Shown here piece after piece: positions 1-63,878 of a stretch of 64,000 nt of DNA. This DNA comes from Salvator merianae (lineage: Eukaryota; Chordata; Lepidosauria; Squamata; Teiidae), in contig QVOM02000073.1 in the NCBI GenBank assembly GCA_003586115.2, positions 61,427,512-61,491,511 of the forward strand. The letters run 5' to 3'. A model generated the notes under the pieces. The model was not told the origin of the DNA. It did not search any database and was given only the letters and a program-made list of their open reading frames with translations. The translations under genes were made by a program, and so were the position numbers. Each line of letters opens with the position of its first letter. Position 1 is the stretch's first letter.

Positions 1-66
1 TGAGGTCTTCTACAGCCTAGAATGGTACTGTGATACCATTCTAGGCTGTAAAGTGTGAACAGGCCC
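1..66 (-). mobile_element. Family A MITE terminus with perfect 17-bp hairpin (cut by window edge)
   Basis: Positions 51-66 read AAGTGTGAACAGGCCC, the inverted form of the family A end GGGCCTGTTCACACTT. Directly inside it lies a perfect inverted repeat: arms 11-27 and 34-50 (17 bp each, starting TACAGCCTAGAATGG), loop CTGTGA. The rest of the element lies outside the window. The copy at 4624 has the same subterminal motif with a weaker stem. It is assigned as a non-autonomous DNA transposon end from the shared terminus and hairpin position. Confidence 0.6.
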
Positions 67-2161: not shown

Positions 2162-2635
2162 GGGCCCTTTTGCACTTTCCACCATGGAATGTTTGCCAGT
2201 GAACATTCCACGGTGGAATAGAACTCACAGCATGGAGACTGTCCGCACTGTGAGATCTTGGAACAGAATGCCAGCAGGATACTAGCATTTGCAGCGCAAA
2301 TGCTGGCATCATGCCACTGTTCTGCACCATTACAATGGACAAGTTTCTGGCTGCTGCCATTGCAATCAGCAATGTCAGGCGATCATGCAGGTGCAGGCAC
2401 AGCTGTGCTGTGTCATTGTACAGGCATAGGCACAGCTGTGCATTCACACCCAGAAGAGGGTGCCAATGCAGTGTACCAGAAGCAGTCCAGCAGTCCAGCA
2501 AGATTTTGTGCTCTATAGCACATAGGAATCAGGAGCAGCTGTAATCTGCCCTTGGTCACCAGAGCCTCTGCGTGGTGCGGATGCACTTTACTAGTGAGTA
2601 TTCTGGCACTCACAGTGTAAAGTAACAACAGGTCC
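2162..2635. mobile_element. Family A MITE with subterminal hairpin
   Basis: The left end is GGGCCCTTTTGCACTTT; the right end is the inverted GTAAAGTAACAACAGGTCC, a degraded match. Immediately inside the left end lies a hairpin with arms 2177-2193 and 2202-2218: 16 of 17 positions pair and the loop is 8 nt. The stem (TTCCACCATGGAATGTT) is unrelated to the stem at 11-50. The open frames of up to 114 codons on both strands follow from this hairpin-rich, stop-poor sequence and resemble no protein I know. Confidence 0.6.
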
Positions 2636-4447: not shown

Positions 4448-4620
4448 GGCTGCATCCACGTGCAAATAAAAAAACAAAGGTGTGGCTCAAAAGCAGCTTG
4501 GTAGATGTGCATTTCTGGCCTTTAATGTGGATTAGAAGCAGGATGGGAACACAAGCCACCACATGCTCCAACCTCTGAGGCTCTTTTAACCTGCTTTTTA
4601 AAACGTGTGTGATTGCAGCC
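4448..4620. mobile_element. Family C MITE, 173 bp, TTA duplication
   Basis: It starts GGCTGCATCCACGTG and ends ACGTGTGTGATTGCAGCC, an imperfect terminal inverted repeat. TTA flanks both ends (4445-4447 and 4621-4623), a 3-bp target-site duplication. A 3-bp TTA site is the classic PIF/Harbinger target preference (family knowledge). The right-hand TTA is at the same time the left flank of the next element, so the two inserted back to back. Confidence 0.7.
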
Positions 4621-4623
4621 TTA

Positions 4624-5156
4624 GGGCATTTTCACACTGACCAACCTAGAATGGTGTGACAATACCATTCGAGACTGGTGAAGACTTAGAGGTATGGTGA
4701 CCATTTGCACTGTGGGGTTAGAATAGCCCCGTATTGGGCCACCAGCACTTGCAGTGCAAATGCAGGCCTGATTGCTATGACAGCGCCCATGGCAATGCCT
4801 GGACATTACCATGGCAATCAGGACACAGCATGTGACTTTGCAGCTGCAGCCTCCCTGCCCACCCACTCACAGCATTCACATCTGAAAGATGGTGCAAACA
4901 CTGCTGACTGGGAGCCATTCCAGCTGCTCCCAGTTAAGCTGTGGGCATTGTTTTAGTTGTCCACAGCTAGGAGTGGTTGTAGACATGGGCATGTGGACAC
5001 ACTGGGCCTGTTCGCACTTACAACAGTATAATGGTATAACTAGCATGGTTCGGGCCAGTAGGGTTTGTCCTGAAATGTACCATCGCTAAGTGCGAACAGG
5101 CCCACTGATCTAGTGAGCATCTGCTCACTCACTAAGGGTCAAGTGTGAAAAGGCCC
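4624..5156. mobile_element. Family A MITE, complete, TTA duplication
   Basis: The ends are GGGCATTTTCACACTGACC and the inverted GGTCAAGTGTGAAAAGGCCC, matching in about 19 of 20 positions. TTA flanks both sides (4621-4623 and 5157-5159). A subterminal hairpin (about 4646-4674, core AGAATGGT/ACCATTC) resembles the perfect hairpin at 11-50. The element is interrupted by a second, short family A copy at 5004-5103. Confidence 0.75.
5004..5103. mobile_element. Nested 100-bp family A MITE with perfect 17-bp inverted ends
   Basis: It runs from GGGCCTGTTCGCACTTA to TAAGTGCGAACAGGCCC, perfect inverted repeats of 17 bp. ACT is duplicated at 5001-5003 and 5104-5106. The perfect ends suggest that this is one of the youngest copies in the window. 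It lies inside the family A copy 4624-5156 and shares both subterminal regions with the long copy at 735-1220. Confidence 0.8.
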
Positions 5157-7628: not shown

Positions 7629-8040
7629 TTTCAGGTGACAAGAGGCAATTGCAGAACCTAAAGAAGACAAGGGAGGCAATTCTGGGCTTTTACCTTTTGG
7701 CTGCTGACTCCTCTCATGATCCTCTCGTTCTCATTCTCGTGCAAATACCAGGAAGCCAAGCAAGCTTGTGAAACAACAACAAAGGGAAGTGGGCAGGCTC
7801 TTGGCTGGCTTCTAGGTATTTACAAAAGAATGATAACAAAAGGAGCTGGCAGACAAGAGGTAAGTGATCGCTATTATGGGAAACGTGGCATTGTGGATGG
7901 ATTTCCCATAATAACGATTATTACCAGATATCGTCTCAATATCCCAGGACTAGATTGCAAATGCAACAATTACATGTGGCATTCCCAATATAGTCCCAGG
8001 AGAATTGTAGGTTTTATTCATGTCTGGAGGCACCCCTAGT
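7629..8040 (+). mobile_element. Family B MITE with covarying hairpin
   Basis: It aligns by eye with the copy at 63434-63878: AAATACC, GGTATTTAC, AGAATGATAAC and GAGGTAAG occur in the same order. The right end GTCTGGAGGCACCCC matches the family end inverted. The internal hairpin has arms 7872-7883 (TATTATGGGAAA) and 7902-7913 (TTTCCCATAATA), extending outward with mismatches to about 7858 and 7926. The loop contains GGCATTGTGGATGG. The 107-codon frame on this strand is a by-product. Confidence 0.6.
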
Positions 8041-9027
8041 CTAGTTTTCAGTCCTGGAATTTCATAGTTGTCTCTCATCCCAGAATAAACATATCTTATG
8101 CTGCTTATATTTTTTAAAATCACTACAACAGTCAAATAGATTGTCCAAAGTGGTTTATGAAGCATTTCCATTGTATCCAATACATGAAGAATGACGAAAA
8201 ATGAATAGATTTGCCTTCTCAATTCCCACACGGCTAGGATCATATTTATTTATAGTATCCCATTCATCTCATTTCGAATTGAGAAACAGCTGAAAGTAGT
8301 TTTCCTTTCTGTACTCCCATTGTGCCTGAACACATACACAAAATAGTTGCTTTGTCTAAGAAATCTTCAGAGCAAGGCATTCCTTTTGAGAGAGAAAAAA
8401 TGTGTTTGTAAGACATTAGACTCTTCTGATCTGGACAATAACAGGCTCTGTCGGAGAGCTGTGGAATAATTCCCCAAAGGTACCACCCAAGTCTAGAGGA
8501 CTATACTTCTGTACTGTAATTAAGGATCTGCTACTGATAAGGCTGCTGACCTAAGCCAGTTTCTGTTAGGCCCAGACACATGGAAAAGGCCAGTGAACTG
8601 AGTGTACATTACCTTCCACTACTAATAGGATCTCCCAGTTGTACTGAAATTGAAAGAGACATAAACAAATGAAAATGTGTCACTGTAATGGGCTCAGATC
8701 TTTAATCTATGGGAACTGGAGAGGATAGAGATGGCAGATGGTCTGTATATGTAACTCAGGATCACAGTTGTTGACATTTATTCAGTTTGGATTGTAAAAT
8801 AGCAGCATTTGCAAAGGGGGTGGATTTAACACAGCCTAGAGCCAGAGCTGGTATTGATAACTTTTTTCTTGGATGCTACTCAAGTGGCAAAAGGAACTAG
8901 GAACTAGCCAGCCCATTTCTACTATGCTGTGTTTTTCAAGTCTAATGTCTATCCAGTCCAATTCTATACATCTACTCTAATGCACCATCTACAGAAGCAG
9001 AAAGATTGGTTTGGGTCGGGCATCGAT
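8041..9027. other. No recognisable feature
   Basis: AT-rich sequence. The frame at 7950-8243 starts in the neighbouring MITE and has no motif. No repeat end is recognised. Confidence 0.45.
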
Positions 9028-9415
9028 GGGCATTTTCTCACTTTCCATGTTAGAACTATCCTGTTCTAACATGGAATGGACCACGTGGCGCAGACACCGT
9101 CCACATTGTGGGGCTTTAGACTAGAATACCATCCCACACTGCATGCTTCATCCCCTTGCTCCCTTTGAAGCTAGGGAATGAAAGTTCTCCAGGTGTGAAG
9201 AGACAGCATGTATGTCTTTTTCAATGTACCAGAGATGGTCCTGGAAAGAAGTCATTTTCTGTGTGACAAAAAAAGTGTATGGGTGGAGCCCAGCCTAGCT
9301 AAGAGGTTCTTGAGGCCTCCGTATATTTACCAGCAGCAGCATGAGTGCCTCAGCACAGTGAGTGCTCTCAGAGTCCTTATTGCCCACTCCGTGGCCCAGA
9401 CTCCAGAGCCATGAC
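9028..9415 (+). mobile_element. Family A MITE with 14-bp perfect hairpin
   Basis: The left end GGGCATTTTCTCACTTTC is followed at once by a perfect hairpin: arms 9043-9056 (TTCCATGTTAGAAC) and 9063-9076, loop TATCCT. Further in, CTTTGAAGCTAGGGAATGAAAG also occurs in the element at 33593, so the two belong together. The right end is not clear and its coordinate is approximate. Confidence 0.5.
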
Positions 9416-13702: not shown

Positions 13703-14074
13703 TCAAGGCCCATATGCCTGGGCAAAGAGAAAGGTCTTTACCAGGCACCAAAACCCAAATAGGGATGGCGCCTGGCGAATCTCAGTAGGGAGGCTGTTCC
13801 ACAACCTGGGGGCAGCCACAGAGAAAGTCCTCTCCCTCACCTCCACCTCCCGCACTAATGCAGGGGAAGGGACCACCATGAGAGACTCTCCCTGTGATCT
13901 CAGCATGCAGGCAGGCACATATGAATGGAGGCACTCCTTCAGGTAGGCAGGGCCCAAACCATTTAGGGCTTTATAGACCAAAGTCAACACCTTGAATTGA
14001 GCCTGGAAACGTATTGGAAGCCAGTGAAGACTTTTCAGAATCAGTGAGATATGTGCACGGCCTGGTTGACCCAA
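13703..14074 (-). pseudogene. L2 reverse transcriptase C-terminus
   Basis: 123-codon frame with LKSLHWLPIRFQAQFKVLTL, YKALNGLGPAYLKE, FSVAAPRLWNSLP and a final VKTFLFAQAY, the standard L2 C-terminal sequence. The natural end of ORF2 lies close to the 3' UTR that follows. Confidence 0.88.
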
Positions 14075-14216
14075 TAGCAGACGAGCTGCTACATTCTATA
14101 CCAGCTCCAGTTTCCGGACCATCTTCAAAGGTAGCCCCATGTACAGTACATTACAATAGTCCAAACGGGAGGTTACCAGGGCATGCAGAACAGTGGCCAG
14201 GTCCCCAGAGTCCAAA

Positions 14217-14501
14217 TTACGGGTGAAGCTGCCAAACTAGTCGGAGCCTCTGATAGACACCCCTGGCCACCGCCGCCACATGTAATTCAAGGGGCAGTGA
14301 TGAATTCAGGAGAACCTCCAGGTCTCGCACCCGGCCCCTGAGGGGAAGAACATTCCCATCCAGCACCAGGTGTCCCGAGATGACCAGAACATGGGGGCTC
14401 CGAACCCACAGAACTTCAATTTTGTCTGGATTCAGTTGGAGTTTATTGGTCCTCATCCAGCCCAACACTGGCCCAGGCAGGAGTCCAGCACAGAGAGTCA
14501 C
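14217..14501 (-). pseudogene. L2 reverse transcriptase, thumb region
   Basis: WMRTNKLQLNPDKIEVLWV is the conserved block after the YADD box in L2 (WM..N.LKLN..KTE). It is followed by RVRDLEVLLNSSLPLELHVAAVARG, matching the usual LGVLLDSSLSLEAQV region. A frame change separates it from the catalytic core. Confidence 0.85.
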
Positions 14502-14838
14502 CTGACTCTGCTAGAATTGAGAGGTAGAGCTGGGTGTCATCTGCATATTGATGGCACCCAACCCCAAACTCCCTAATGACCTTCCCAAGCGACTGCATGT
14601 AGATGTTAAACAGTAGTGGGGACAGCACTGAGCCCTGGGGAACCCCACAAGGGGGTTCCCATGGCTGTGAGCGCTGGCCACATACCACCAGTCTCTGACT
14701 CCTCCCCCAGAGGAAGAGCCACCAGTCCCTGAAGCCGGTCCAGGAGAATACCATGGTTGATGGTATCAAATGCAGCCGACAGGTCCAAGAGAGCCAACGA
14801 GGAAGCATGCCCCCTGTCCCTCTCCCGAAGTAGGTCAT
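14443..14838 (-). pseudogene. L2 reverse transcriptase, catalytic core
   Basis: It carries VPQGSVLSPLLFNIYM (RT motif B) and YADDTQLYLSI (motif C, the YADD box with both catalytic Asp). Upstream the frame overlaps the N-terminal half at 14606-15352; downstream it shifts to the frame at 14217-14501. Catalytic residues are intact although the gene as a whole is broken. Confidence 0.88.
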
Positions 14839-15352
14839 CCATCAGGGCGACCAAGGCAGTCTCTGTGCTGTAGCCCCGCCTAAAACCAGATTGAAACGGG
14901 TCTAGATAATCAATATCCTCCAGGAATGTCTTCAGTTGCCTCACCACCGCCGTCTCCAAGATCTTGCCCAGGAAAGGGACGCTAGCTACTGGGCGATAGT
15001 TGCCCGGCACCGTGGGGTCAAGGGAAGGCTTCTTAAGGAGGGGGCAGACCACTGCCTCTTTAAGGGACAATGGTACTACACCCTCCCCTGGCGACACGTT
15101 GACAACGCTCAAGACCCACTCAGCCATCCCTCCCTGGCTCGATTTAATTAGCAAAGACAGACAAAGGTCTAGGAGGCAGGTGGTAGGCTGCATTCCTGCA
15201 AGCAGCCTGTCCACATCCCCAGACCGCAACAACTCAAACTGATCCATCAAAAACTGACAAACTGGAGCCCTGGACACCTCCACAGAATACTGTTCAAGTG
15301 TGGTATCCAATCCTGAGCGAATCTGAGTGCCTTTGTCCCTAAAGTGCCTCAT
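14606..15352 (-). pseudogene. L2 reverse transcriptase, N-terminal half
   Basis: 248-codon open frame. It contains the blocks EAVVCPLLKKPSLDP, GNYRPVASVPFLGK, FQSGFRRGYSTETAL and LDLSAAFDTINH; the last is RT motif A with its catalytic Asp (AFDT). The order and spacing are those of L2/CR1-type RTs. The frame is lost after about residue 205, and the sequence continues in the frame at 14443-14838. The pattern is clear enough to be sure of the LINE assignment. Confidence 0.88.
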
Positions 15353-15355
15353 AAA

Positions 15356-15639
15356 AATGTCACAGCAGATATTTTTAAAAAAATCTTAGGGTTTTATTTT
15401 TTTGTTATTGTATATATTTCACATGCCATTATGTGTTTGGGGTGCTCCTCCCAGTCACCTCTAGCAGCTAATCCTACCACACCAAGTACCCAACACCCTC
15501 TCCAAAACCCAGAGGACTCACCCCACAAACTTACCAGACCCTAGCAGTTATTTCTTCAAATTCCTCTGCCAAATTCCTGTTACCTTTCCTTGGTCTCAGG
15601 AGAACAGACTTCTTCCACTTGAATATACATTCAAACATT
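15356..15639. other. Unassigned spacer between L2 and R4 remnants
   Basis: AT-rich, then a moderately CA-rich stretch (15440-15600). It could be 5' sequence of the CR1 into which the L2 may have inserted, but I cannot match it with confidence. Confidence 0.35.
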
Positions 15640-16875: not shown

Positions 16876-16886
16876 TGGAAGACTGA

Positions 16887-17152
16887 GGGCGTTTTTGCAC
16901 TTAATTATCCTGTTCTACGATGGTATGGACCATGTAGTGCAGACACCATCCCCATTGTGTGGCCCTAATCCTTACCTTCAGAAGGCTACTGGCTGGTAGC
17001 CTTGCTATGTCTTTACCATGGCAGTGGTGGGGAAGCATCCAGCCAGTGCCGTGGTGTCTGCCAGTGCTGTGCAGTGTGCAGGCGCGATTGGGCAATCACA
17101 TAGACCCGGTCACCATGTGCTGTGTGGCAGCCATGGTAAGTGCAAACTCACT
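16887..17152 (+). mobile_element. Family A MITE, short form
   Basis: It starts GGGCGTTTTTGCACTTA and ends with an inverted TAAGTGCAAACTCAC. The interior from TATCCTGTTCTA to about 16960 follows the copy at 9028 closely, but the first hairpin arm is missing, so the subterminal hairpin is lost here. It abuts the 3' limit of the R4 fragment. Confidence 0.55.
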
Positions 17153-18974: not shown

Positions 18975-19906
18975 ATTTTTAGGACATCCAGCTGTATCTC
19001 TCTGTTCCTTCTGAGTCATGTGAGGTAGACAAAGTGCTGGAGGCAGTAATGGGCTGGATGTGAACCAATAAACTGAAACTGAATCCAGATAAGATGGGGG
19101 CTCTATGTGTCACGGAACTCGAATCCAGGAAGTTAGACAGCATCTGATTCTCAACAGGGTTGTTCTGCCCCAGAAATAAAGGGTGTGTGATCTGGGGATG
19201 CTTCTGGATTCACCTCTGCTTCTTGAGGCTCAGGTGGCAGCGGTAGCCATAAGTGCTTACCTCCATCTCCAACTGGTTCCCCAGGTTCAGCCTTTTCTGG
19301 ATAGGGATAACTTGGCCACAGTGAGCCATGCTCTGGTAACCTCCAGACTCATCTACTATAATGTGCTGTACATGGGGCTACCCTTGTGGATGGTCTAGAA
19401 GCTGGAACTAGTGCAGAATGCACAACTGCAGACAGGAATTTCTGACTGAATGCACATCCCAACAGGCTTGAAGGAGCTGCACTGGTTACCAATGATCCAT
19501 ATAAAGCCCTAAATGGTTTGGGTCTTGAATAGCTGAAGAAGCGCCTTTTCCCATTTAGATCTGCCTATGCCTTAAGATCACAAACTACCCTCAGAGCTGC
19601 AAGGGGCTGCAGTGTGTAAGAGGGCCTTATCTGTGGCAGCCCTCTGGGCTTTGGAAGAACCTTCCAGTGGAGGTATACCAGGCACAAACTTTATATGGTT
19701 TACAGCACTTGGTTAATACATACTTCTTCACCCAGGTCTTCCTCTAAATGTAGCCCTGCTGGGGTAGGAGGGAGAGAGGGTAGGTGGGCAGGTTATATTT
19801 TAAATACGTTTTAGTGTTCTATGTTCTATCAAAAGCTGTGACCCGCCCTGGGACCTTTGGGTGAAGGGTGGAATACAAGTGTAATAAATAAATCAATAAA
19901 TAAATA
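18975..19906 (+). mobile_element. L2 LINE, 3' part of RT plus 3' UTR
   Basis: Plus-strand translation starts just after the YADD box (DIQLYLSVP), then MGWM and NKLKLNPDKMG (18985-19095), then the region giving LQLVPQVQPFLDRDNLATV (19265-19320), the sequence read out by LHWLPIRF in other L2s (here in another frame near 19470), and RPWQPSGLW-like blocks. It ends with CCGCCCTGGGACCTTTGGGT and a (TAAA)n tail at 19885-19905. Many indels and stops are present. It is 5' truncated inside the RT. Confidence 0.82.
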
Positions 19907-22074: not shown

Positions 22075-22535
22075 AAGTCCTAGTCAGCCTCCAGACAGCG
22101 AGAGGAAAATGGAAGGTTGTTTTATCCCACAATTGCTCCTTGCCATCTTTGGCAGACAGAAGGGCAAAATCATGAGGCAAGCTCAGGACCTTACCTTGTC
22201 TGGTGCTTGTTCCTGCAATGGCACAGTGGGTATTTCTGGATATTCCAGTGGCAGAAGTGCACAAGCAGTGAGTATTTTAGCCCAGGTTTTGCCACTGTGC
22301 TTGGGCAGTGGGTATTTCCAGCATGCAAAATTGTGGGAGAAAGTGTCCAGACAAGGTAAGCTACATCTCTATTTTGGGAAAACGCAGGTTTCGGAGTTCT
22401 TTTTCCTAATGATATTCCAGGATTTTACCCCTATATCCCAGAGCTAAGTTGGGTTTGCCATTGATACATGTGACAGTCCCAATATAGTGCCAGAATAACC
22501 CTAGGTTTTAGGCCCTGCCTGGACACAGCCCTAGA
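22075..22535 (+). mobile_element. Family B MITE
   Basis: It begins near TAGTCAGCCTCCAGACAG and ends near CCTGCCTGGACACAGCCCTA, an imperfect inverted pair. A CTATTTTGGGAAAAC segment at about 22357 corresponds to the hairpin left arm of the other copies; the right arm (TTCTTTTTCCTAATGAT) pairs only partly. A terminal ACATGTGACAGTCCCAATATAGT stretch is shared with the copies at 7629, 36480 and 63434. Confidence 0.5.
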
Positions 22536-30310: not shown

Positions 30311-31263
30311 AGATGGAGTATGCTAGAAGGGAGTGAGGCCTCCCATAATCCTCACTAGTACGCAGAAGGGAGGTCTCTAAACCTGTTCTTATCACAGGAC
30401 AATGTCCCATGCAGAAAGGCCTTATGATAGCTATTTCCTCATACCAATACTTATATTGGTTTGATAATATTGGACATTCTTTCCTTGTAGTACCTTCAGA
30501 TGGTTTTATATTTATGAAAAAAAGGGCAGGCGGCTTGAATCCCACCTGAAAATAAGAGGGATGGCATCCCACATTAAGCACTGTTCACTTCCAAAGCACT
30601 GCAAATTACACAGGAATTTCTGTTGTTCTACCATTCTTTCATACCCTAAGAGTCAAAATACTCTGCGACCTTCTCAAAGGTTTAAATTTGCCTGTGGTAT
30701 TACATTGATGTCATTAAAGAAAGGTTTCAGCAATTTTCAGAAGAAGGTCCAGTTTCAATAAGGCAATGGGATTTCCACATCTTGCTGCAGCAATGTGGCT
30801 GAGGCCTGCTGCTGCTACCTGTGGTGGGGGATAGGGCAATTTATCTCAGAGCAGGATTTCTCACTATGAAGTAGCCCATTCCTATTCCCATTCAATTCAC
30901 TTCACTGTAGCTAATTAAACCATTGAGAGCAGAAGGAAGCAGCCCTGGCACCCATGCAGCAGGGCTGGCTGTCATGGCAGCTGCAATGCCCCCCTGCCTA
31001 AGGTCCGACACTCCTTAGACCAATGGCCTGCTGGGGAGACCAGGTCACACTAAGCCAGCTCTCCCTCCAGCCAGCTCCATCCTATTCCCCTGCAGACTTA
31101 GACAAAAATCACTGTCTTCAAACAGCTGTTTATGAAAACAGCTGTATTGATGGCTATGAAATACAATTACATAATTCTTTTCTTTACAACACCTGAGGCA
31201 ACAAAATGCTAAATACAAGTGCACTATTTTGTAAAATAAAGCCCAAAAGTAAACTGGACATTT
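30311..31263. other. No recognisable feature
   Basis: Mixed composition, short frames only. Confidence 0.4.
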
Positions 31264-36479: not shown

Positions 36480-36860
36480 AATATCTTGTTGCCCAGACAA
36501 CTGGGCAACAGTGAAGGCAAGTGCCTGATGCGATGCACACATCCAGGTATTTTGACAGCACGAAATACTCAGAAATGTATGCATGCTGGTCTCCACACAT
36601 GCACAGTGGCCATTTTCGTGTCAGATTCGGCCATGCATGTGTGCAGGGAGGCATTTTATTCAGCAGGACCATGCTGCCGAGCTTCCAGACAGGTAGGTTG
36701 TAGCACTATTTTGGGAAAACCAGAACTGAGAGTTGGGTAAGGTGAGATTTTACCCTTATAGCACACGGTTATGTTGGGGTTGCCACAAATACATGAGGCA
36801 ATCCTAGTATAGCCACAACATAAAACTGCTTTTTAACCCCTGTCTGGACCACCTCTACAT
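36480..36860 (+). mobile_element. Family B MITE
   Basis: It contains CAGACAGGTAGGTTGTAGCACTATTTTGGGAAAACCAG (36686-36723), the family B hairpin left arm, then ACATGAGGCAATCCTAGTATAG and the end CCTGTCTGGACCACC. The left boundary is uncertain; a hairpin TTGCCCAGACAACTGGGCAA lies at 36489-36508. The right hairpin arm is degraded. Confidence 0.5.
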
Positions 36861-39052: not shown

Positions 39053-39747
39053 GGCTATTTCCACACTTGCAGGAGCTGCACTGCTTTAACTGGACCTTCT
39101 CTGACTGGAACGGATCCCTGTTGGAGCAGTCCAGCTATCCTGGAACAAGCCCATCCACACTTAGGCCCTTTCTGCACTTGGCTTTATTCTGGATTATATC
39201 CAAGAATAGAGGCCTGCTATTCACATGCTAGTGCAGATTACAGCAGGCCCTGAGTGGGGCCTGCCATAGTTTACACTAGCATGCAGATGGCAGGTCCCTA
39301 TTCCAGGATATAATCTAGAATAAGACCAAGTGCAGAAAGGGCCATACACTTGGATGACCTGTTCTGAGATAGACCCAGTGATACAACAAACTTCAGAGCC
39401 TACTGTGAGGGCTCCAACAGCCAGGAACAAAACTTCCAGGCCTTGGAGCCTCAGGGGGACTCATTTCAGCAATGTATTTTGGTGCACCACCAAAATGGAT
39501 CCCCCTGCTAAATCAGAACAGGGAGGCATGTGCCCTTCCTCATGCCTCTCTGGACCATTGGTCCAAGTCCTGGTCTAGACAGACATTTTGGCAGTCTAGA
39601 CAAGGCTACACTGTGTCCAGTGCAGAGACAGTGTACTAGTAGGGGGCATGACCTCTCTCTTCCGCTTCAGAGTGTGGAAGAGAGATGCTCAGAAGTGGAC
39701 TAGGGCTTGTGCTGAACCACTATACTGGCCAGCGCAGAAAGGCCCTT
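39053..39747. mobile_element. Family A-like element hosting a foldback MITE
   Basis: Left GGCTATTTCCACACTTGC follows the TTA at 39050; right end CAGCGCAGAAAGGCCC at about 39747. The interior TTGGTGCACCACCAAAATGGATCCCC (39479-39504) is an internal hairpin shared with the long copies at 29860, 42009 and 59100. The 180-bp foldback at 39164 sits inside. Boundaries are inferred from the ends only. Confidence 0.4.
39164..39343. mobile_element. 180-bp near-perfect foldback MITE
   Basis: GGCCCTTTCTGCACTTGGCTTTATTCTGGATTATATCC at the left pairs with the inverted right end (two mismatches over that span), and pairing continues to the centre at about 39255. It is flanked by TTA (39161-39163) and ATA. 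The copy at 62290-62450 keeps only the right half. The transcript would fold into one long hairpin. Confidence 0.8.
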
Positions 39748-45479: not shown

Positions 45480-45690
45480 GCTGCTCACCAGATGTGCAGG
45501 TAAGAGGGGCTATTATGGGAAATCTGCCATTGCTGCTAGATTTCCCATAATAGCACTCCAACATGCTTTTTTACCATTGCAATCTATGTTCGGTATGCCT
45601 TGGGTATGACTGGCATCCTCAATGTGGTGCTGAGAGGCTTGCAAACAAATTTTACCTTGCGTCTGGTGGCAGTCTAGGTAACAAAGGAAC
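45480..45690 (+). mobile_element. Family B MITE part with perfect 17-bp hairpin
   Basis: Arms 45509-45525 (GCTATTATGGGAAATCT) and 45538-45554 pair perfectly around a 12-nt loop, GCCATTGCTGCT. GCAGGTAAG precedes it as in the other copies. Stem core and loop match the copy at 7629. The end near 45680 (TCTGGTGGCAGTCTAGG) is uncertain. Confidence 0.55.
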
Positions 45691-55399: not shown

Positions 55400-55812
55400 G
55401 GTAGGTTCATAATAAAGGTCAGCTCCAGATGCCAGCCAAATACAGCAGCAACAGGTGATATTCTGGAGAAAAGCCTCTCCAAAATGATTGCCTGTTGTCT
55501 GCAGTGACAGAACTGGCACAAAATACCCAGAAGTACACAATCGCAACGACTGTGCATGCATGGACACCTTTTCAGCCCATTTGCATGCGCAGTGGGCAGA
55601 ACAACAATGGCGGCTCCATCTACAAGATCAATTTTAGCGCTACTTCAGGAAAACCCACGACAAGAGTTGGGTTTTCCAGAAATAGGCTACTGCATGTTTT
55701 AGGGGGATATAGTGTAGCTACGGTAGAGTTGTCACAGATGCGTGTGGCGATCCCATCATAGTGGTGCCATATTGGCGCTATATTCCCCCTGTCTGGACAC
55801 AACATAAGGCAG
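55400..55812 (+). mobile_element. Family B MITE with long hairpin
   Basis: The hairpin left arm CTACTTCAGGAAAACCCA (55640-55657) and right arm TGGGTTTTCCAGAAATAG (55668-55685) pair with three mismatches. TAGTGTAGCTACGG, GCGATCCCATCATAGTGGTGCCATATTGGCGCTATATTCCCC and the end CTGTCTGGACAC match the inverted copy at 62943. The left limit is approximate. Confidence 0.55.
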
Positions 55813-60639: not shown

Positions 60640-61114
60640 AAGAAGGAGGGAAAGATCAGACTGGGTCTTGGCTGTTTAGTCTACCAATCAGAATGGTGAC
60701 AAGGAGTCTAGCAACTGGCATGGAGCGCTTTTGTGAGCGCACCCCTTACTGCCACTTTCACGTTCTCCTTTCACAGGAATGAGAGAAAGTGAAGAATTTT
60801 TTTTCTTCCTTAGAAGAGGGGCAAGACATTAGCTGAGCAAGACAAAGGCATTACAACCTATATTTAGATCAAGCCAGTCATGAGCAGCAGTAAAAAAGCC
60901 ATTCATTCCAGCGTCTGTGTCAAAATGCAAATACAATGGCCTAGTTAGTTAATACAATGATTCCCTGAGAACAAGATCAAACATTTTCTGAACAACAAGG
61001 AGATGTTAGAGATACAAATTACCATTGGCACACCGATAATAAAATGGATAAGATACACTGTAAGGCCAACTCAACGCCCAGTGACAGGCTGAATTCATTA
61101 ACAATGATTAACAC
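60640..61114. other. Candidate conserved non-coding segment with OCT/SOX-type site
   Basis: The sequence is complex, lacks repeat ends and is rich in factor-type motifs. The octamer ATGCAAAT (60925-60932) is followed after no gap by ACAATGG (60933-60939), a SOX core. Homeodomain-type cores (AGTTAGTTAATAC, GTTAATAC, CATTAACAATGATTAAC) lie nearby. These motifs are short, so regulatory function is only a suggestion. Confidence 0.3.
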
Positions 61115-61117
61115 TGA

Positions 61118-61255
61118 GGCTGCATCCAGATGTCGCTTATTTATTCCACTATATTTGGATATTCCAGAATGACGTATGGATATTCTGGAATATTCATGTT
61201 TTATTCTGGAATATTCAAATATAGTGAAACAAGTAAGCAATGTCTAGATGCAGCC
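61118..61255. mobile_element. Family C foldback MITE, 138 bp, TGA duplication
   Basis: It runs from GGCTGCATCCAGATGTC to TGTCTAGATGCAGCC, with pairing continuing inward through CACTATATTTG/CAAATATAGTG and GATATTCCAGAAT/ATTCTGGAATATTC. TGA flanks both sides (61115-61117 and 61256-61258). It is almost fully palindromic and structurally well preserved. Confidence 0.8.
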
Positions 61256-61258
61256 TGA

Positions 61259-61596
61259 GCTGACTCTCATGGGGATTATGATGGTTTAGGGTCCAGTAGG
61301 GGCAAGTCTACAGAGATTAAAGGCACAAGGAGCATCCAAATGTGAGAATACCCAGCCTTGAGTTGGCAAGGGTCACCCTAGGTGCCCAGGAGCATGAAAC
61401 TGAATGGACAAATTCATTAGTTTTGTTGGCAAAGATACAGAAGACCTACTGCCTTCTTCCAGGGGCATGCTGAGGATTAACCCTGACACCTTCTGCATTC
61501 AGAGTAGCTACTCTACCCCTGACCTATGCTTGCTCTCTAATGGTGATCTACAGCTACTCAGATTAATGAGAGATAGGCACCTGCATTCAAAAGATG
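61259..61596. other. No recognisable feature
   Basis: Short spacer between two family C elements; the frame at 61404-61637 runs into the next element and has no domain. Confidence 0.4.
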
Positions 61597-62289: not shown

Positions 62290-62450
62290 GTTTCTTTGCT
62301 GAAGCAGAGGAATTTCTAGCATGCTTTGATGTGTTGAGTGGCTCCTGTTAACACTTCCAAGCAGGATTTGCCATAGTCTGTACCACCATGTGGATGGCAG
62401 TGCCCTATTCTGGGATATAATCCGGAATAAGGCTCAGTGCAGAAAGGGCC
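62290..62450. mobile_element. Family A foldback copy, right half
   Basis: GTGGATGGCAGTGCCCTATTCTGGGATATAATCCGGAATAAGGCTCAGTGCAGAAAGGGCC matches the right half of the foldback at 39164-39343 with few changes. The left half is degraded, so only partial pairing remains. Confidence 0.65.
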
Positions 62451-62942
62451 TATGACTATATCTCACAACTATAATGTTTTGATTCAGTAATTTGACACAA
62501 GCGAGAAGAGGCTCTACACATAAGACAGGGTCCAGATTTGCCTCCTCTGTATGTCAAAGTCTTATGCATGTATCTCAGTTGATATGTAAATCATGGCCTC
62601 ATTCATTTCAGCTGTATGAAGGGTAAGAGGCATGGCGGCTGGATGCTGGGGAAAAATACACACGCATGAAGTTCATATGTTCTTTAGATGTCTGACACTG
62701 CTATTTGAATCAGTCATGTCAGGTTCTTGCAACATAACTACAACATATTCAGGAAACAGGATTTTGTCTCAAGATATCAACAGTACCTTAAAGAACCCCC
62801 TAAGAATCTTGAATTAGCTCTATAAAAAGTTTACAAGTCATTCAGAAACTAAACAGTGAATTAAAATAACACAAAAAGTTAAACCAAAGTAAGAGTAGAG
62901 CCAGATTAACGATTTGCAAAGCACACAGATTTCCTCTTAGAC

Positions 62943-63385
62943 CACATCTAGATGGGGGAAATATAGCACCTCTATGGTGCCAATATTGTGGGATTGCCAC
63001 AAGTATTTGCCATAGCTACACTATATCCCCCCAAAATGCGTGATAGCCTATTTCAGGAACACCCACCTCTGATGGCACTATTACTTACTTTCCAGCCAGA
63101 GCTGCCATTGTTGCTCTGGTCACTGCGCATGTGCAGGGGCAAAAAAATATGGTTGGGCATGTGTGGTGGTCATGATCGCACATTTTGCGCTGGCAAAATA
63201 CCTGGATATACGCATTACTAAAACATGCACAGACAGGACAGGCCCCCATGCTGTCTATGCAATAAGCAATAGTTTCAGAGGGACTTTTCTCCAAAATATT
63301 GCTTGCTGCCATGATATTCGGCCGCCAAATCACAGGAACAGAAGTGGGCAGAAAAGTTAGGGGGAGGTACAACCAAAGCCTATTG
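62943..63385 (-). mobile_element. Family B MITE, inverted
   Basis: ACATCTAGATGGGGGAAATATAGCACC and ATGGTGCCAATATTGTGGGATTGCCACAAG are the inverse of the copy ending at 55812. TATTTCAGGAACACCCACC (63037-63071 region) corresponds to its hairpin arm. A separate perfect hairpin, CCAGAGC TGCCATTGTT GCTCTGG, lies at about 63098-63121. Right limit approximate. Confidence 0.55.
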
Positions 63386-63433
63386 CATCTACAATTATCA
63401 CCATGCTTCTGTGTGTTTGTAAAGGGCAAGAGA

Positions 63434-63878
63434 AAGGGTACCTCCAGATGGCAAAAGGAAACTGTGGAATCTTCTTTAGATTCCACAATCACCTCTCACA
63501 GCCTGCCAGATGGCAGGAGGCAATCCCAGGACATTTCCAAGCACTTACCTCATCCGCTAGCTATTTGCATTATCATGGCTGCTCCGAAATACCCAGCTGT
63601 TGGCAAGCGCCCACCCACTTCCCTTTGTTTTTTTCTCACACTTGCTAGCATCCGGGTATTTTAACAGAGGAATGATAATGTGAAGACCTGGCAGATGGAG
63701 GTAAGGAATCAATATTACAGAAAACCTGACATTGTTGATGGATTTTCTGTAATACTAATATCTCAGAGTTTTGATCGACTAACCTGGGACTATTCCAGGA
63801 TTGTCACGATATGTGAGGCAATCCCAATACAGTCATGGGAGAATTGCTGTTTTTTACTTCCATCTGTAGGAACCTTTT
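63434..63878 (+). mobile_element. Family B MITE, complete, covarying hairpin
   Basis: Left end AAGGGTACCTCCAGATGG and inverted right end AAAGGTTCCTACAGATGG match in about 15 of 18 positions. The hairpin arms are 63713-63724 (TATTACAGAAAA) and 63743-63754 (TTTTCTGTAATA), loop with GACATTGTTGATGG. A second hairpin GTGGAATCT/AGATTCCAC lies near 63462-63485. Frames of 65-135 codons here and just upstream are by-products. Confidence 0.7.

What the first reader, a model, noticed from the sequence alone, without database searches (positions are those of the whole stretch)
7858..7926. Internal hairpin of family B MITEs shows compensatory stem changes
Three copies keep a hairpin at the same place. Copies at 7872-7913 and 45509-45554 have the core stem TATTATGGGAAA/TTTCCCATAATA; the copy at 63713-63754 has TATTACAGAAAA/TTTTCTGTAATA. 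The 12-bp stems differ at three positions on each arm and all three differences restore pairing (T-A to C-G, G-C to A-T twice). The loops stay similar (GGCATTGTGGATGG, GCCATTGCTGCT, GACATTGTTGATGG). Changes in stem with conserved loop and pairing are the mark of selection on structure, or of arm-to-arm correction. A transcript hairpin, a transposase-recognised cruciform, or a precursor of a MITE-derived small RNA are possible explanations.
Basis: partly seen in the sequence, partly recalled or inferred. Interest (0 to 1): 0.8.

Follow-up and report, generated by a model that had tools for sequence, protein, structure and literature searches.

The report
Hairpins beside transposon ends stay paired
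Short hairpins inside old, decaying mobile-DNA copies of an animal-like genome have changed letters on both arms in step so that the arms still match; a second, unrelated family in the same window shows it too, which points to a DNA-level process or a structural need at transposon ends rather than to a special RNA gene.

Summary
Observation confirmed: the three hairpins and their three two-sided changes are exact. I found four more copies of the element (seven in all). The hairpin (HP2) is well paired in c1, c2, c3 and c6, decayed in c4, and has lost one arm in c5 and c7. c6 adds a further two-sided change (A-T to T-A). Independent evolution of the arms from a paired ancestor is rejected: at most 1 of 8000 simulations matches, even after choosing the best-paired 3 of 7 copies. 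HP2 is one of several palindromes in a palindrome-rich MITE-like element; arm co-evolution is clear in HP2, suggestive in palindrome P1, absent in HP3. A second MITE-like family with no detected similarity has a hairpin abutting its inverted-repeat end and shows stronger compensation (8 of 16 columns, 4 of 7 copies). Compensated changes are not enriched for wobble-reachable types (20 transitions, 23 transversions), and no Rfam family reaches its cut-off, so a transcript or microRNA role is not supported. Best reading: ordinary MITE hairpins whose arms are kept alike by templated arm-to-arm copying, perhaps with structural selection in active copies. The two could not be separated: the host-genome search did not complete.

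The parts
7872..7913 (+). HP2 of copy c1, core stem TATTATGGGAAA/TTTCCCATAATA, 18-nt loop; with outer pairs 7867-7918
45509..45554 (+). HP2 of copy c2, perfect 17-bp stem, 12-nt loop
63713..63754 (+). HP2 of copy c3, stem TATTACAGAAAA/TTTTCTGTAATA, 18-nt loop
55640..55685 (+). HP2 of copy c6, stem CTACTTCAGGAAAACCCA/TGGGTTTTCCAGAAATAG (two mismatches), 10-nt loop
22370..22412 (+). HP2 remnant of copy c4: 5' arm TATTTTGGGAAA, 3' arm decayed (9 of 17 register columns paired)
36707..36718 (+). HP2 5' arm of copy c5; 3' arm deleted
63048..63060 (-). HP2 3' arm of copy c7; 5' arm deleted
7844..8030 (+). c1 module R-HP2-HP3-R' (covariance model R1 match; the model contains this copy)
45483..45669 (+). 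c2 module
63686..63870 (+). c3 module; inverted end repeats 63441-63462/63849-63870 (73% complementary)
22342..22525 (+). c4 module
36680..36850 (+). c5 module
55613..55799 (+). c6 module
62945..63112 (-). c7 module
7690..7863 (+). c1 palindrome P1, arms 7690-7764/7800-7863
7937..8007 (+). c1 hairpin HP3, arms 7937-7968/7975-8007
11..50 (+). family E copy e1 hairpin, 17/17 pairs, next to AAGTGTGAACAGGCCC
2177..2218 (-). family E copy e7 hairpin, 16/17 pairs
4640..4679 (-). family E copy e6 hairpin, 13/16 pairs
9043..9076 (-). family E copy e4 hairpin, 14/14 pairs
5000..5107 (.). family E copy e3: end motif 5000-5020 repeated inverted at 5087-5107 (95%), the evidence that the motif is a terminal inverted repeat

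Best explanation
The hairpin is one of several palindromes of an old, non-coding, MITE-like DNA element (about 0.4 kb, at least seven copies here) in an animal-like genome. Shown: the two arms of HP2 evolve together within each copy or subfamily, beyond shared ancestry, and the same holds for the hairpin beside the inverted-repeat end of a second family. Inferred: while the elements were active, and perhaps also in resting copies, one arm was repeatedly copied onto the other by templated DNA synthesis (template switching or hairpin-templated repair), giving two-sided changes of any base type in one step; the hairpin may also have been favoured in active copies because structure near the ends helped mobilisation. 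Inserted copies then decay, or lose an arm by deletion. No RNA product is needed.
For: HP2: quartet counts summed over 10 copy pairs give 23 'by copy', 0 'by arm', 1 'cross'. Independent-arm null: 0 of 20000 runs in each of 20 settings reach the observed low mismatch with high divergence (3 of 7 copies), 0 of 15000 in each of 16 settings with c4 included (4 of 7), and at most 1 of 8000 when the best-paired 3 of 7 are picked. Family E (4 of 7 copies): 8 of 16 columns with two or more Watson-Crick types, 20 of 32 changed comparisons fully compensated, mismatches 4 of 61; 0 of 5000 in each of 12 settings and 0 of 8000 in each of 5 settings after picking the best 4 of 7. Compensated comparisons 20 transitions to 23 transversions, like family B flanks (467 to 548), so no sign of a G-U route. 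Copies either keep the stem or lose an arm (c5, c7 and family E copy e5). Template switching is reported to repair stems and make multi-base compensations (PMC8794818, abstract and passages).
Against: HP3 in the same elements shows no arm co-evolution (16 by copy, 20 by arm, 22 cross), although its loop is shorter, so a general correction process should have reached it. P1 is strong in four-way alignments (13:2:2, 11:1:1, 12:2:0), but in independent pairwise alignments within-copy identities 0.80, 0.77, 0.68 overlap same-arm ones 0.69-0.81. Another palindromic family (39119-39388) is less alike within the copy (72%) than between copies (80%). c1 and c2 share the identical 12-bp stem although their flanks are 47% identical, which arm copying alone does not explain. 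Against sister-pair flanks (56% transitions, 122 to 95) the transversion argument is weaker but points the same way. Comparisons between copies are not independent.
Confidence: 0.5

Rival explanations
1. Selection for DNA structure in the active masters: the hairpin near the end-like motif is a shape signal (cruciform or single-strand hairpin) for the transposase or a host factor; each subfamily kept pairing by selection and inserted copies only decay.
For: The hairpin sits at a fixed place next to an end-like motif in two unrelated families while its letters vary; HP2 pairs better than HP3 in the same copies; flank identity of 39-69% means that much divergence predates or accompanies subfamily splits.
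Against: No transposase, excision or insertion evidence here; HP2 adjoins an internal copy of the end-like motif, not clearly a terminus; three of seven copies of each family lack a good hairpin, though loss after insertion is allowed.
Confidence: 0.3
2. Selection on an RNA: the element is transcribed and the hairpin is a transcript structure or small-RNA precursor.
For: Single-strand folds of the minus strand are more stable than shuffles (z -5.5, -3.7, -4.1 for c1-c3). When each hairpin is read towards its neighbouring end-like motif, G-U type pairs outnumber A-C ones 27 to 11 (HP2 5:2, HP3 19:9; family E 3:0 read).
Against: That orientation was chosen after seeing the counts, and cells shared by descent are not independent; on the element plus strand the count is 21:14. 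No Rfam match at gathering score. Transversion-type swaps are as common as in flanks. Any palindrome folds well.
Confidence: 0.1
3. Chance, shared ancestry, or unrelated sequences: the three copies are different families whose stems only look homologous.
For: Flanks are only 39-69% identical, and c2 is distant everywhere outside conserved blocks.
Against: Module order R-HP2-HP3-R' and local sequence are shared by all seven (model R1 bits 98-164, built from these same seven, so not an independent test); blastn links c1-c3 at 1e-22 and c1-c2 at 6e-8. Ancestry alone fails the simulations.
Confidence: 0.07

Closest known systems
MITEs / foldback-type non-autonomous DNA transposons (general class, recalled)
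   Same: Short, non-coding, repeated, end inverted repeats (c3 63441-63462/63849-63870; e3 5000-5020/5087-5107), palindromic interior
   Different: Superfamily unassigned: no transposase, and no certain target-site duplication; hairpin letters vary with pairing kept, which I did not find described for MITEs in nine paper searches
Template-switch-maintained hairpins (Monttinen and Loytynoja 2022, PMC8794818; abstract and passages seen)
   Same: Multi-base compensatory changes in stems, perfect stems restored
   Different: Shown there for RNA genes; here in non-coding mobile DNA, and one-step origin is not shown because no ancestral reconstruction was possible
MITE-derived microRNA genes such as hsa-mir-548 from Made1 (PMC1784062, abstract start seen in search listing)
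   Same: Palindromic MITE giving a hairpin
   Different: No Rfam family at its cut-off here and no expression data

Membership tests
MITE / non-autonomous DNA transposon | Several dispersed copies of a short non-coding element | tested here: met
   Seven copies of family B; the ORF across c1 has no Pfam match
MITE / non-autonomous DNA transposon | Terminal inverted repeats | tested here: inconclusive
   c3 ends 73% complementary over 22 nt, others not measured; family E copy e3 95% over 21 nt
MITE / non-autonomous DNA transposon | Target-site duplications | tested here: inconclusive
   Looked for by eye; nothing certain in copies this diverged
MITE / non-autonomous DNA transposon | Autonomous partner with a transposase | not tested
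   Host genome search unanswered; in the window 5 of 88 ORFs were scanned against Pfam, the one match being a reverse transcriptase
microRNA precursor | Match to a curated family at gathering score | tested here: not met
   0 matches in the window; mir-2001 22.7 bits against 74
microRNA precursor | Processed small RNAs from the arms | not testable with these tools
   No reads available
Template-switch-maintained hairpin | Compensated changes beyond independent evolution | tested here: met
Template-switch-maintained hairpin | Clustered two-sided changes arising on one branch | not testable with these tools
   Needs orthologues or near-identical copies; copies here are 39-69% identical in flanks

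The most novel reading that the evidence does not exclude
In this genome unrelated MITE families carry a hairpin beside an end-like motif whose pairing, not sequence, is the conserved feature: a structure-coded transposon-end signal, rebuilt by arm-to-arm copying during each round of mobilisation.
Probability: 0.2. Interest if true: 0.7.

Novelty: new member of a known kind. Interest (0 to 1): 0.4.

Why it matters
Covariation is usually read as proof of a functional RNA. Here it is strong in non-coding mobile DNA, in two families, without the marks of RNA selection, so palindromic repeats can give false RNA-structure signals. If orthologous copies show the same two-sided changes, these repeats would let template switching be measured in an animal genome; if only active subfamilies do, the hairpins would be candidate structural signals for transposition.

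Tried and rejected
Whole-genome copies: the genome search 'own' was sent 11 times in the same form and never answered. Scan of viral contigs for the c1/c2 stem pattern: 0 matches. Rfam: nothing at gathering score; permissive scans gave only weak hits. tRNA scan: none. Loop inversion between subfamilies as a template-switch footprint: not supported, the best inverted score is not clearly above the direct one. Strand-specific wobble as an RNA test: inconclusive. A covariation count on the MAFFT alignment A1 favours the structure (76.7% paired against 71.2% shuffled; covariation 0.213 against 0.152, 0 of 500), but sliding by -1 gives 13 pairs with two-sided change against 15 for the true register, and c6 and c7 are misplaced in A1, so I relied on hand registers. 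Target-site duplications: nothing certain. Host identity: squamate-like repeats is my recollection, not a call.

Rows dropped before counts: HP2 tests use 5 of 7 copies in quartets (c5 and c7 lack an arm), 3 of 7, 4 of 7 (c2 left out because its core stem equals that of c1); family E tests use 4 of 7 (e2, e3, e5 have no comparable hairpin). simulates this choice.

Full report
What is there. The three hairpins are at the stated places with the stated letters. They belong to one element family. Sensitive blastn and nhmmer with the first copies found more, and a covariance model of the module, built from the seven copies, ranks those seven at the top with 98-164 bits; the next hits are 32 bits or less, mostly reverse-strand echoes of the same palindromes. 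The copies are c1, c2, c3, c4, c5 and c6 on the plus strand and c7 on the minus strand. Their flanks are 39-69% identical, so this is an old or deeply subdivided family.

Anatomy. From left to right: a left hairpin that differs between copies, a long palindrome P1 (c1 arms 7690-7764/7800-7863), a motif like CCAGACAAGGTAAG (R), the hairpin of the finding (HP2), a second hairpin (HP3), and an inverted R. Folded alone, the R-to-R' module commonly gives an outer stem with hairpins inside; HP2 appears in c1, c2, c3 and c6 on both strands, while details differ between copies and strands. In c3 inverted end repeats lie at 63441-63462/63849-63870. The ORF across c1 has no Pfam match.

The hairpin across copies. 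In a fixed register of 17 columns Watson-Crick pairs are c1 16, c2 15, c3 15, c6 11 and c4 9; over the 12-column core they are 12, 12, 12, 10 and 8, the c4 figure resting on one hand-placed gap. c5 lacks the 3' arm and c7 the 5' arm. Stem types are TATTATGGGAAA (c1, c2), TATTACAGAAAA (c3), TACTTCAGGAAA paired with a TATTTC-type 3' arm (c6; c7's surviving arm agrees with the latter), and TATTTTGGGAAA (5' arms of c4 and c5). c6 against c1 has two two-sided changes, A-T to T-A and T-A to C-G, plus two one-sided ones. Within-copy arm identity is 0.94, 0.88, 0.88 for c1, c2, c3 but 0.65 for c6 and 0.47 for c4 over 17 columns; between copies the same arm averages 0.73 (5') and 0.58 (3').

Is it more than ancestry? 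I simulated a perfect stem whose arms evolve independently. With c1, c3 and c6 no run of 20000 in any of 20 settings had 2 or fewer mismatches together with 19 or more between-copy differences; the chance of 4 or more columns with two Watson-Crick types alone was 0-0.0025 for branch lengths up to 0.2 and rose to 0.06 at 0.5. With c4 added the joint event was again never seen (15000 runs, 16 settings), while the column count alone had probabilities up to 0.045 at the longest branch. Since well-paired copies catch the eye, I simulated seven copies and kept the best three: at most 1 of 8000.

Controls inside the element. Quartet patterns (by copy: by arm: cross) are 23:0:1 for HP2 over 10 copy pairs and 16:20:22 for HP3 over 15. 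P1 gives 13:2:2, 11:1:1 and 12:2:0 in four-way alignments, but separate pairwise alignments show only a modest within-copy advantage. So the effect is not uniform along the element. A different palindromic family in the window is less alike within a copy (72%) than between copies (80%).

A second family. Perfect inverted repeats are common in this window (14 against 0, 0, 2, 0, 0 in controls). One led to family E, with no blastn similarity to family B. Its end motif (GGGCCTGTTCGCACTT, read inwards) is repeated inverted in copy e3 (5000-5020/5087-5107, 95%). Directly inside the motif lies a hairpin: e1 17/17, e7 16/17, e4 14/14, e6 13/16; e2, e3 and e5 have none comparable. Anchored on the end motif, 8 of 16 columns hold two or more Watson-Crick types, 20 of 32 changed comparisons are fully compensated and quartets sum to 20:0:0; no simulation matches the joint statistic, also after picking the best four of seven.

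Mechanism. RNA selection normally leaves a bias to changes reachable through G-U: in RNA genes 61.0% of instantaneous compensations were of that type and 78.5% of two-step ones affected G-U pairs (PMC8794818, passages). Here 20 of 43 compensated comparisons are transitions, as in the flanks (46%; 56% for sister pairs). These comparisons are not independent. Wobble cells on the element plus strand are 21:14; read towards the neighbouring end-like motif they are 27:11, a lead in favour of a strand-specific constraint that was chosen after seeing the data. Rfam gives nothing at its cut-offs. I therefore favour DNA-level arm copying, with selection for structure in active copies as a serious rival. 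The fixed place next to an end-like motif in two families, and the failure of HP3 to show the effect, speak for some role of position; the losses of single arms and the variety of base changes speak for a mutational process.

Limits. All evidence is from one 64-kb window; the host genome search did not complete (11 calls) and nothing here is experimental. The host group is not established. No paper describing compensatory stems in MITEs surfaced in nine searches of an open-access library, which is weak evidence of novelty.

Noticed in passing
1-68, 2158-2226, 4620-4688, 9025-9082, 730-794, 4999-5063, 16883-16930: Family E, a second MITE-like family with a hairpin abutting its inverted-repeat end and strongly compensated stems; three of seven copies lack the hairpin.
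   Followed up: yes
61110-61261: Palindromic element with 72-nt arms 81% complementary, 2 nt apart, with the inner perfect hairpin ATATTCCAGAAT/ATTCTGGAATAT; flanked by CTGAG on both sides by eye.
   Followed up: partly
39119-39388, 62357-62452, 30341-30422: Another palindromic repeat family, less alike within a copy (72%) than between copies (80%): a contrast to the finding.
   Followed up: partly
14606-15385: Reverse-transcriptase fragment on the minus strand (Pfam RVT_1, E 1.4e-11), part of a LINE-like element; 13893-14479 and 19035-19582 hold inverted related stretches.
   Followed up: no
45509-45554 and 7872-7913: c1 and c2 share the identical 12-bp stem although their flanks are only 47% identical; unexplained.
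   Followed up: partly
HP2, HP3 and family E hairpins: Read towards the adjacent end-like motif, G-U type mismatches outnumber A-C type 27 to 11; post hoc, not independent, but worth a genome-wide test.
   Followed up: partly
62945-63870: Two copies of the family (c7 minus, c3 plus) lie head to head close together.
   Followed up: no
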